A stretch of 57,335 nt of DNA from Candidatus Gemmiger excrementigallinarum (lineage in GTDB: Bacteria > Bacillota > Clostridia > Oscillospirales > Ruminococcaceae), in NCBI GenBank assembly GCA_019116445.1, contig DXBP01000051.1, forward strand, positions 1-57,335. Direction: 5' to 3'. The translations under genes and the position numbers were made by a program. The notes under the pieces were generated by a model. The model was not told the origin of the DNA and searched no databases. It saw nothing but the letters and a program-made list of their open reading frames with translations. Positions 29,269-49,311 of the stretch are shown one piece after another (within the stretch, counting starts at the first letter, position 1; every line of letters begins with the position of its first letter).

Positions 29269-29358
29269 AGGTGGAACCGGGAGGTTCGCGCGACCGGCAG
29301 GTTGCGGCAAGTTGGGCAACCCGCCTGATGGCCCCGGTTCCGGGGCCGTGTATTTCGG

Positions 29359-29384
29359 AACCAACGCTCTGCGTTGGTTTTTGC
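29359..29384 (+). terminator. Terminator of the ECF-ABC operon
   Basis: AACCAACGC-tct-GCGTTGGTT followed by TTTTGC. A second GC hairpin (GGCCCCGG/CCGGGGCC near 29330-29346) lies just before it. Confidence 0.75.
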
Positions 29385-29449
29385 ATCGCGCTTGATTCTA
29401 TGGGCGCGATTGCGGGGCATGGCCCCGCAGGCAAAAAAACCGGAAAACC

Positions 29450-29833
29450 CGCCGCTACTTCCGAGGCGCGGGGCACGGCCGAAAGGGTGGAAGCCGCGCT
29501 GCCCCAGCACCGTTTCCTTCTACCGCAAAGGGCAGCGTCTGCGTCGCTCGTCCTCGCAAGACATCCAGTATTGCGTCGTCCTCGCTCCTTGTCACTGCCG
29601 CTTTGCGGCGAAGGCCCCGGCACTTTTGCAGCGCGGTTTCCACCCTGGGGCTGCACGCCCCCAAGACCCCCAAAGAAGAAGTCGAATCGAAAAAACCGGG
29701 AAAAATGCCTGGAAAGACTATTTTTCCATCGGTTTTTCCGATTCTCCACTTTTGATTCGGGTGTGCCCGACCCCCCCCCGTGGCGGAGAGTTACTATGTA
29801 AAAAAGGCATGGTCTGCGGACCATGTCTTTTTT
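29450..29833 (+). repeat. Hairpin-rich intergenic element, copy A
   Basis: First copy of an element also found at 46919-47133. Shared blocks in order: CGCCGCTACTTCCGAGGCG with GCGGGGCACGGC; a GGGGC-tgcac-GCCCC hairpin (29647-29661) with AAGACCCCCAAAG; a long hairpin at 29684-29744 with loop GCCTGGAAAGACT; CTCCACTT; a TCGGG-tgtg-CCCGA hairpin; and a terminator-like GGCATGGTC hairpin at 29801-29832 with T-run. In this copy a 161-bp segment (29485-29645) interrupts the element. I cannot name the family. Confidence 0.8.
29485..29645. mobile_element. MITE-like insertion with 18-bp terminal inverted repeats
   Basis: GGGTGGAAGCCGCGCTGC (29485-29502) and GCAGCGCGGTTTCCACCC (29628-29645) are inverted repeats with one mismatch. 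The segment between is absent from copy B of the surrounding element. Internal arms CCGCAAAG and CTTTGCGG also pair, as do GGCAG and CTGCC. No coding frame is present. It may be a non-autonomous element or a large structured hairpin. Confidence 0.5.
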
Positions 29834-29886: not shown

Positions 29887-29927
29887 CCTACTTTCTTTGC
29901 AAAGAAAGTAGGTGCAAAGAAAGTAGG
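29887..29927 (-). repeat. Palindrome family, class A, copy 1
   Basis: A 26-bp perfect palindrome with arm CCTACTTTCTTTG, plus an extra half-copy at 29913-29927. On the minus strand it is followed by the tail CAAAGAAACTCCAACC. Confidence 0.85.
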
Positions 29928-35706: not shown

Positions 35707-35785
35707 GTTCCTTCTTTGCAAAGAAGGAACCGAAGAAACTCTCATAAAAAATATCCCGCAGGGCAGCACCCTGCGGGATATTTTT
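35707..35785 (+). repeat. Class B palindrome plus terminator, copy 1
   Basis: A 24-bp palindrome with arm GTTCCTTCTTTG (35707-35730) and the tail CGAAGAAACTC. A terminator follows: ATATCCCGCAGGG-cagca-CCCTGCGGGATAT (35751-35781) with flanking A and T runs. The same palindrome-tail-terminator order occurs at 42518-42597. Confidence 0.85.
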
Positions 35786-35930: not shown

Positions 35931-35971
35931 CCTACTTTCTTTGCAAAGAAAGTAGGTGCGAAGAAAGTAGG
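35931..35971 (-). repeat. Palindrome family, class A, copy 2
   Basis: The same 26-bp palindrome as at 29887, again with a half-copy (35957-35971) that abuts the thioredoxin stop codon. The minus-strand tail is CAAAGAAACTCTAACC. Confidence 0.85.
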
Positions 35972-42517: not shown

Positions 42518-42597
42518 GTTCCTTCTTTGCAAAGAAGGAACCGAAGAAACTCCCAACAAAAATATCCCGAGGGGGCACACCCCCTCGGGATATTTTT
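42518..42597 (+). repeat. Class B palindrome plus terminator, copy 2
   Basis: The same 24-bp palindrome as at 35707 (42518-42541) with tail CGAAGAAACTC. A perfect 18-bp terminator follows (42558-42597, loop CACA), whose inner stem differs from copy 1 (CCCGAGGGGG in place of CCCGCAGGG) yet still pairs. Confidence 0.85.
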
Positions 42598-46881: not shown

Positions 46882-46909
46882 GTTCCTTTTTGAGCGACCA
46901 AAAAGGAAC
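46882..46909 (+). repeat. Palindrome family, class D
   Basis: GTTCCTTTTTG-agcgac-CAAAAAGGAAC with tail CGAAAAAGTC, running directly into copy B of the hairpin-rich element. It is the most diverged member of the palindrome family. Confidence 0.7.
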
Positions 46910-46918
46910 CGAAAAAGT

Positions 46919-47133
46919 CGCCGCTACTTCCGAGGCGCGGGGCACGGCTTGGGGGCTGCACGCCCCCAAGACCCCCAAAGGGGAAGTCGCCCACGCCAAA
47001 ACGGGGAAAAACGCCTGGAAAGACTGTTTTTCCTGCCGTTTTGGCGGTGCTCCACTTCTGATTCGGGTGTGCCCGAACCCCCGTGACGGCATTTTTATGT
47101 AAAAAAGGCATGGTCATTCGACCATGCCTTTTT
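46919..47133 (+). repeat. Hairpin-rich intergenic element, copy B
   Basis: Uninterrupted copy of the element at 29450. In order: CGCCGCTACTTCCGAGGCG and GCGGGGCACGGC; hairpin GGGGGC-tgcac-GCCCCC (46951-46967); AAGACCCCCAAAG; long hairpin 46992-47049 with the identical 13-nt loop GCCTGGAAAGACT; TTCGGG-tgtg-CCCGAA; and a terminator hairpin at 47102-47133 (GGCATGGTC-attc-GACCATGCC) with T-run. It could be the 3' UTR of the CobW pair or a separate small RNA. Confidence 0.8.
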
Positions 47134-47227: not shown

Positions 47228-47253
47228 CCTACTTTCTTTTCAAAGAAAGTAGG
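47228..47253 (-). repeat. Palindrome family, class A, copy 3
   Basis: A 26-bp palindrome with arm CCTACTTTCTTT and an altered centre, lying directly on the scfB stop codon. The minus-strand tail is CAAAGAAACTTTCAACC. Confidence 0.85.
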
Positions 47254-49179: not shown

Positions 49180-49311
49180 CCGGATAAAAATATACGATCT
49201 GTGAACAGAGTGTGAATGGGGCCTTCTTTGCACAGAAGGCCCCCCTGATCCTGTATACCGCGGCGGTTCGGCGGGGAAAGGGCGGGCCGGCATACAATTT
49301 CCGGCGTACTA

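What the first reader, a model, noticed from the sequence alone, without database searches (positions are those of the whole stretch)
29646..29833. Duplicated intergenic element whose main hairpin co-varies around an invariant loop
The element occurs at 29646-29833 and 46948-47133, same orientation. In copy A the arms GAATCG + AAAAACCG + GGAAAAAT pair with ATTTTTCC + CGGTTTTT + CGATTC. In copy B CACGCC + AAAACGG + GGAAAAAC pair with GTTTTTCC + CCGTTTT + GGC/GTG. The 13-nt loop GCCTGGAAAGACT is identical. Stem bases change in pairs (GAATCG to CACGCC; terminal A-T/T-A to C-G), while loop and flanks (AAGACCCCCAAAG; CTCCACTT; TCGGGTGTGCCCGA) are kept. The terminator hairpin also varies compatibly (GGCATGGTC closing with GTC or GCC). 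This is the pattern of a selected RNA, ending in its own terminator. I know of no named family with it.
Basis: seen in the sequence. Interest (0 to 1): 0.8.

Follow-up and report, generated by a model that had tools for sequence, protein, structure and literature searches.

The report
Modular palindromic repeat of Gemmiger genomes
The two matching stretches are copies of a scattered, snap-together DNA repeat made of several hairpins that gut bacteria of the genus Gemmiger carry between genes; the paired changes in its stems are real, but they look like upkeep of DNA palindromes rather than proof of a new RNA gene.

Summary
In detail: both window copies exist as described, and the long hairpin's arms differ by paired changes around an identical 13-nt loop. 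The copies are two of six in this genome, and of 33 that I read in nine genomes (eight of one genus, Gemmiger by name-bearing records; 15 copies in one). The element is a mosaic of separable hairpins (H1-H5). The 'own terminator' is a separate module, found within 220 nt behind 3 of 9 copies of this type and alone at four places in this genome. Covariation is strong in relatives (15 of 52 pairs changed on both sides), yet none of 624 pair cells shows a one-sided pair-keeping (G-U) change, against 42 one-sided and 31 two-sided cells in 6S RNA of the same genus. Stems thus behave as Watson-Crick palindromes: hairpin DNA, a unit used on both strands, or template-switch/gene-conversion copying. 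Hairpin parts reassort between copies, other repeats are nested inside, copy B's gap lacks the core in three relatives, and at one orthologous site stems differ while loops match. Best reading: a new BOX/BIME-like interspersed palindromic mosaic repeat, mobiliser unknown. No Rfam match; four paper searches found no description.

The parts
46882..46909 (+). H1, A/T-rich palindrome at the left end of copy B (GTTCCTTTTTG..CAAAAAGGAAC)
   Evidence: located; hairpins of this kind precede the core in most of the copies printed
46919..46937 (+). H2, copy B (CGCCGCTACTTCCGAGGCG)
   Evidence: H2 seen in 5 of the 6 own-genome copies, the sixth having lost its 5' half
29450..29468 (+). H2, copy A, separated from H3 by the nested repeat at 29485-29645
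46948..46970 (+). H3, copy B (CTTGGGGGC-TGCAC-GCCCCCAAG)
   Evidence: in relatives 3 of 9 pairs two-sided, 0 one-sided
29647..29662 (+). H3, copy A (conserved GGGGC-TGCAC-GCCCC part)
29684..29744 (+). H4, central long hairpin of copy A: arms 29684-29706 and 29720-29744, loop 29707-29719
46992..47049 (+). H4, central long hairpin of copy B: arms 46992-47012 and 47026-47049, loop 47013-47025
29757..29770 (+). H5, copy A (TCGGGTGTGCCCGA)
   Evidence: in the G008 fragments L032 and L039 H5 stands without H4
47063..47076 (+). H5, copy B
29800..29833 (.). T, A-run/T-run flanked hairpin next to copy A: a separate module, palindromic, could act on either strand
   Evidence: independent occurrences
47101..47133 (.). 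T, same module next to copy B
29485..29645 (.). nested 161-bp repeat with 18-bp imperfect terminal inverted repeats, between H2 and H3 of copy A; not part of the family core
   Evidence: the same insert between H2 and H3 in the C55 copy, by reading

Best explanation
The element is the core (H3-H4-H5) of an interspersed, modular, multi-hairpin palindromic repeat family of Gemmiger, comparable to BOX elements or BIMEs. Copies spread into intergenic space by an unknown route, can persist through species splits, take up other repeats, and exchange whole hairpins with one another. The stems stay complementary because the unit is maintained or recognised as a DNA palindrome, and/or because template switching and gene conversion copy one arm, or the whole hairpin, onto the other. 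By crude calls two thirds of the copies lie behind a gene pointing at them, so they are probably co-transcribed and fold in mRNA 3' ends; any effect on RNA would be secondary. SHOWN: copy number, modularity, nesting, core-free sites, covariation without G-U changes in the best-sampled subfamily, reassortment of hairpin parts. INFERRED: mobility, DNA-level maintenance, transcription.
For: Six copies in this genome. A DNA search of 35 genus genomes matched 10; I dropped G012 and G024 after reading the sequence, leaving 8. Fifteen copies come from one genome. Modularity: T behind 3 of 9 copies and alone at four places; H5 without H4 in L032 and L039. Both outer-stem classes of H4 (CAGA, GAAG) occur with inner hairpin CGCGAAC and with AACGAAA, so nested hairpins reassort (18 copies). 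Another repeat sits inside H2 in L052 and L068 and inside H5 in L056, L058 and L072; a 161-bp repeat lies between H2 and H3 in two own-genome copies. Core-free site: the gap between the cobW-domain and radical-SAM genes of copy B (domains) lacks the core in G034, G026 and G025, the 3 of 16 relatives printed that keep the radical-SAM neighbour within 520 nt (30 loci fetched). At the orthologous site G006 L058 / G013 L068 (flanks 90% and 88% identical) H3 and H4 stems differ on both sides while loops match. Strand-symmetry test: 12 full copies, 15 of 52 pairs two-sided, 61 two-sided and 0 one-sided cells, 5 of 624 cells unpaired; 6S RNA of 17 genus members on its own RNAalifold structure, 15 of 59 pairs two-sided, 9 one-sided only, 31 two-sided and 42 one-sided cells, 24 of 1001 unpaired. 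Pair types at variable pairs, G-U to Watson-Crick: 16:44 in 6S, 0:37 here, Fisher p = 0.0004.
Against: No transposase, terminal inverted repeat pair or target duplication was tied to the family; only the Y1_Tnp family was searched for. The 6S control is a single-copy RNA across species, whereas 11 of the 12 element copies come from one genome, so the comparison is not matched for divergence, and cells and pairs are not independent. G-U cells exist outside the counted helices: one in the window's own subfamily (C56-G92 to U-G, L025), four in helix 38-41/109-112 and four in outer H1 pairs, both left out for doubtful pairing. Unpaired segments and the asymmetric CTTAAC bulge are conserved, as a recognised RNA would be. 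The gene-orientation bias (22 of 33, one reassigned by reading; binomial p = 0.08) is weak and rests on crude ORF calls.
Confidence: 0.64

Rival explanations
1. A selected structured RNA (sRNA or 3'-UTR element) read from the + strand: stems covary because the RNA fold is needed, and loops are fixed because they bind a protein or RNA.
For: Strong covariation over shuffles and slid controls; loops and bulge fixed within a subfamily; stable folds; in 10 of 18 G006/G013 copies the stop codon of the upstream gene lies 100-110 nt before GGGGC.
Against: No G-U changes among the counted variable pairs of 12 copies, unlike 6S RNA; six of 33 copies have both neighbours on the opposite strand by crude calls; a simple promoter scan gave no + strand site in front of either window copy; the terminator is not a fixed part; no Rfam match.
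Confidence: 0.17
2. A non-autonomous transposable element (MITE or REPIN-like) with a specific transposase: hairpin ends are recognised as single-stranded DNA, e.g. by a Y1/HUH enzyme.
For: Interspersed copies, species-specific expansion (15 in G006, 6 here, 1-3 in the other six genus members with copies), core-free sites, hairpins at the ends, and a roughly 650-750-nt insert that lies inverted in G004 relative to G009 and G020 at one orthologous gap.
Against: Y1_Tnp was found in 9 of 12 genomes searched and does not track the element: G008, G020 and G203 carry copies but have no match at E 0.001. In the Y1 loci the matches with E below 1e-3 lie only in the last 28 nt of the queries, 3' of the core, at a separate GTAG-type hairpin; a 15-nt match to H3 in L156 (E 0.04) looks coding by reading. 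No target duplication seen. Other transposase families were not searched.
Confidence: 0.16
3. Neutral mutational upkeep only: replication template switching turns imperfect inverted repeats into perfect ones, so two-sided changes arise without any selection on structure.
For: Two-sided Watson-Crick-only changes; template switching is reported to leave multi-base compensatory changes in hairpins (PMC8794818, passages read).
Against: It should also invert loops and erase bulges; here loops and the 3'-side bulge are kept within a subfamily. It does not explain spread.
Confidence: 0.2

Closest known systems
BOX elements of Streptococcus (boxA-boxB-boxC)
   Same: Composite interspersed repeat of separable modules, foldable, found in clusters with other repeats, over-represented between convergent genes (PMC3049150, passages read).
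   Different: Different sequence, genus and hairpins; no variable-number tandem module seen; hairpin stems here turn over by paired changes; no IS-like ends identified.
REP / BIME palindromic repeats with RAYT
   Same: Palindromes, intergenic, mostly behind genes, often dimers or clusters (PMC3733652, abstract and section 15 read).
   Different: By reading, no GTAG/CGTC tag at the foot of the core hairpin; longer (core about 135 nt, 230 nt with H1 and H2, against 20-40 bp); not tied to a Y1/RAYT gene. A separate GTAG-type hairpin does lie next to some copies.
6S RNA and other structured RNAs with covariation
   Same: Long hairpin, covarying stem, conserved unpaired parts.
   Different: 6S shows many G-U and one-sided changes, the counted helices here show none; 6S gave one match in each of 33 genomes with a match, this is interspersed.

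Membership tests
Rfam RNA families (release 15) | score above a family's gathering threshold | tested here: not met
   0 matches in the window; sub-threshold matches to copy A are to unrelated families; only tRNAs in 12 related loci
Intrinsic-terminator-ended sRNA gene | terminator is a constant 3' end of the unit | tested here: not met
   T within 220 nt behind 3 of 9 copies; T alone at four places
Structured RNA under selection | covarying pairs including G-U intermediates on one strand | tested here: inconclusive
   covariation met; no one-sided pair-keeping changes in the counted helices against the 6S control
Structured RNA under selection | a discrete transcript | not testable with these tools
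   no RNA-seq available here
REP/REPIN (RAYT-mobilised) | GTAG (or CGTC) tag at the hairpin foot | tested here: not met
   by reading; the feet of H4 are GTCG and CTCC
REP/REPIN (RAYT-mobilised) | linked RAYT/Y1 transposase flanked by the repeat | tested here: not met
MITE | terminal inverted repeats shared with an IS, and target duplication | tested here: inconclusive
   palindromic H1-type ends on both sides of some copies, but H1-type hairpins also stand at core-free sites; no duplication seen; ISs other than Y1 not searched
BOX/BIME-like mosaic repeat | interspersed intergenic copies made of separable, recombining palindromic modules | tested here: met

The most novel reading that the evidence does not exclude
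A new class of bacterial selfish hairpin arrays in which each hairpin is a replaceable cassette: its loop and bulge are recognised and fixed, while its stem is free to change as long as both arms change together in a strand-symmetric, G-U-free way. Such a unit would be recognised as an extruded DNA hairpin on both strands, and it would be a natural record of template-switch or hairpin-conversion events.
Probability: 0.2. Interest if true: 0.65.

Novelty: new member of a known kind. Interest (0 to 1): 0.38.

Why it matters
Two-sided stem changes around a fixed loop are usually taken as the signature of a functional RNA. Here the same signature comes without G-U intermediates in the best-sampled subfamily, with swapping of hairpin parts and with interspersed copies, so this family is a cautionary case for covariation-based RNA discovery in repeat-rich gut Clostridia. 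It also makes the question 'selection on RNA, or DNA-level palindrome upkeep?' directly testable by sequencing strains of one species.

Tried and rejected
Known RNA family: none. RAYT/IS200 mobilisation: Y1_Tnp does not track the element, and its loci match the queries strongly only 3' of the core; no other transposase family was searched. An RNA model from eight G006/G013 copies (R1) found 3 of 247 family genomes (stricter filters, few members of the genus drawn) and a flank pattern 5 of 396; helix 5 of R1 was written one column off, helices 1-4 are right. A DNA search of 35 genus genomes gave 10, of which G012 (L022) and G024 (L023) were dropped as chance matches after reading. Phages: one record with a 42-nt match, an unverified faecal 'Bacteriophage sp.' contig whose end, when read, holds a G006-type copy. 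Viral contigs: one, near tRNA genes, 98.7% identical to the G203 locus. Plasmids: none. A triplex or alternative-pairing idea for the C-rich tail after H3, and integron attC (from memory), were considered by eye and dropped. A reverse-strand RNA (A.C mismatches on + being G.U on -) was considered; too few independent cases to judge. I first took the insert of G009/G020/G004 to lie upstream of mnmE, as copies do in G000 and G008 (so the notebook entry says); one search shows it lies behind the gene that follows mnmE, a different gap.

Counts that lean the other way: an earlier count on eight of these copies had four one-sided pair-keeping cells, all in helix 38-41/109-112, apart from those in the misplaced helix 5; that helix was left out because its pairing is doubtful. 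Outer H1 pairs, with 4 G-U cells at aligned columns, were also left out because the arms there differ in length. In one search one H5 pair was misplaced (1 of the 37 Watson-Crick types comes from it); one search uses the right register. The 6S control used 17 of 30 loci fetched, those on the + strand; one search entered 43 for its 42 one-sided cells in one test that I do not cite.

Papers: PMC3733652 abstract and section 15; PMC8794818 and PMC3049150 passages only; PMC3116915 and PMC8266576 search listing only. No description of this repeat was found in searches (two unrelated papers; none); the library is open-access only. GTPase/kinase names rest; the ABC permease and the ORF beside the L195 copy had no Pfam match there, and 'ABC permease' is recalled from reading.

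Full report
WHAT IS THERE. The central hairpin H4 has the identical loop GCCTGGAAAGACT and folds well beyond shuffles. It is flanked by a GGGGC-TGCAC-GCCCC hairpin (H3) and a TCGGGTGTGCCCGA hairpin (H5). Upstream lie a further G/C hairpin (H2) and an A/T-rich palindrome (H1, copy B only); downstream lies an A-run/T-run hairpin (T). In copy A a 161-bp repeat with 18-bp imperfect terminal inverted repeats separates H2 from H3.

IT IS A REPEAT FAMILY. This genome (82.98% complete) holds six copies: the two here and those at C34:111783, C45:3263, C55:9291 and C43:16157, the last with its 5' half replaced. A nucleotide search over 35 genomes of the genus matched 10; after reading I keep 8. A pattern scan of the named collection gave 22 loci, all in records named Gemmiger, hence the genus name. 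In all I read 33 copies in nine genomes: G006 15, G000 6, G013 3, G008, G009 and G004 2 each, G020, G034 and G203 1 each. Outside the genus only G203 turned up (3 of 247 family genomes with model R1; 5 of 396 by pattern, the others being of the genus); its copy starts a few bases behind a stop codon, as does that of a viral-collection contig 98.7% identical to it.

RELATIVES SHARE FLANKS AND ARCHITECTURE, NOT THE HAIRPIN SEQUENCE. G006/G013 copies have loop GCAGTATTACT with a CTTAAC bulge; G004/G009/G020 copies have another apex; G000/G008/G034 copies have the window's type. Loops are therefore fixed within a subfamily, with small changes (GCCTGGAGAGACT in G008 and G034, GCCTGGATAGACT in one G000 copy), not across the family.

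COVARIATION. In the window's subfamily (8 copies) 7 of 37 pairs change on both sides; no shuffle of 500 reaches the covariation score, 3 reach the pair count. Four of the five in H4 separate two subfamilies that both occur in G000 and in G008, so they are few events. In 12 full G006/G013 copies 15 of 52 pairs change on both sides, covariation score 0.276 against 0.090 in shuffles and at most 0.059 when slid.

WHY NOT SIMPLY AN RNA. Structured RNAs commonly pass through G-U. As a control I took 6S RNA, a long hairpin RNA, from 17 genomes of the same genus, on its RNAalifold structure: 15 of 59 pairs change on both sides, 9 on one side only; 31 two-sided, 42 one-sided and 24 unpaired of 1001 cells. 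The repeat has 61 two-sided, 0 one-sided and 5 unpaired of 624 cells. By pair types at variable pairs, G-U to Watson-Crick is 16:44 in 6S and 0:37 here (Fisher p = 0.0004). The control is not matched for divergence or copy number, and I left out two regions with doubtful pairing where eight such cells occur in all; the window's own subfamily has one G-U cell. Still, the stems behave as strand-symmetric palindromes.

MODULES. T lies within 220 nt behind 3 of 9 copies of the window's type and stands alone at four places. H5 occurs without H4 in G008 (L032, L039). In 18 G006/G013 copies the outer stem and the inner hairpin of H4 reassort: CAGA with CGCGAAC 4 and with AACGAAA 1; GAAG with CGCGAAC 1, with AACGAAA 4 and with AACGGAC 7; AAAG with CGCGAAC 1. 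Another multi-hairpin repeat lies inside H2 (L052, L068) or H5 (L056, L058, L072). At one orthologous site (L058/L068; flanks 90% and 88%) that repeat sits at different places in the two species, and H3 and H4 stems differ on both arms while loops are the same. At another, behind the gene that follows mnmE in G009, G020 and G004, a roughly 650-750-nt insert lies inverted in G004 relative to the other two (mnmE layout checked in G009).

SITES. Copy B's gap (cobW-domain gene / radical-SAM gene) lacks the core in G034, G026 and G025, the 3 of 16 relatives printed that keep the radical-SAM neighbour there; they carry an H1-type palindrome and a different terminator hairpin. Copy A has a counterpart in G008 ahead of the same cytidylate-kinase gene cluster; G021 and G002, which keep that kinase gene, have no core match in the whole genome. 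The C43 copy's gap is free of it in G006. Upstream of mnmE G000 has a full copy and G008 only an H5 remnant. By crude ORF calls the upstream gene points at the copy in 22 of 33 (one, L054, reassigned by reading; p = 0.08), and in 10 of 18 G006/G013 copies the stop codon lies 100-110 nt before GGGGC.

MOBILISER. None found, and only one family was searched. Y1 transposases occur in 9 of 12 genomes but not in G008, G020 or G203, which carry copies. In the Y1 loci the matches with E below 1e-3 are 20-26 nt long and lie in the last 28 nt of the queries, downstream of the core, at a GTAG-type hairpin of the kind described for REPs (PMC3733652 abstract and section 15).

VERDICT. A new member of a known kind: a BOX/BIME-like mosaic of palindromic modules, found in some Gemmiger species and one relative, not in Rfam and not met in the paper searches made. 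Its paired stem changes are real, but by themselves they do not show a functional RNA. Template switching is a published route to such changes (PMC8794818, passages).

Noticed in passing
29485-29645: 161-bp repeat with 18-bp imperfect terminal inverted repeats (GGGTGGAAGCCGCGCTGC / GCAGCGCGGTTTCCACCC), MITE-like, also nested between H2 and H3 of the C55 copy (L003/L137).
   Followed up: partly
about 29330-29436: Another multi-hairpin stretch (GGCCCCGGTTCCGGGGCC, CCAACG..CGTTGG, GCGGGGCATGGCCCCGC); by reading, the same kind of stretch replaces the 5' half of the C43:16157 copy.
   Followed up: partly
29891-29908, 35710-35727, 35935-35952, 42521-42538, 47232-47249, 49222-49239: Six CTTTCTTTGCAAAGAAAG-type palindromes in the window (up to 3 mismatches; 0.01 expected by chance).
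   Followed up: no
G006 L054, L063, L127 and others, 3' of the copy: GTAG-type hairpins such as CGTAGGGGCCGGGCATGCCCGGCCCG, shared with Y1/RAYT-like gene loci (L148, L149, L154, L164): possibly the true REP system of Gemmiger.
   Followed up: partly
L059 (G009), L067 (G020), L073 (G004): Roughly 650-750-nt inserts bounded by inverted H1-H2-H3-like sets with differing interiors, behind the gene that follows mnmE; inverted in G004.
   Followed up: partly
L131 (G203) and L195 (viral collection): Divergent copy directly behind a 441-residue ORF without a Pfam match (in G203 its counterpart), with two tRNA genes nearby, possibly at the edge of an integrated element.
   Followed up: partly
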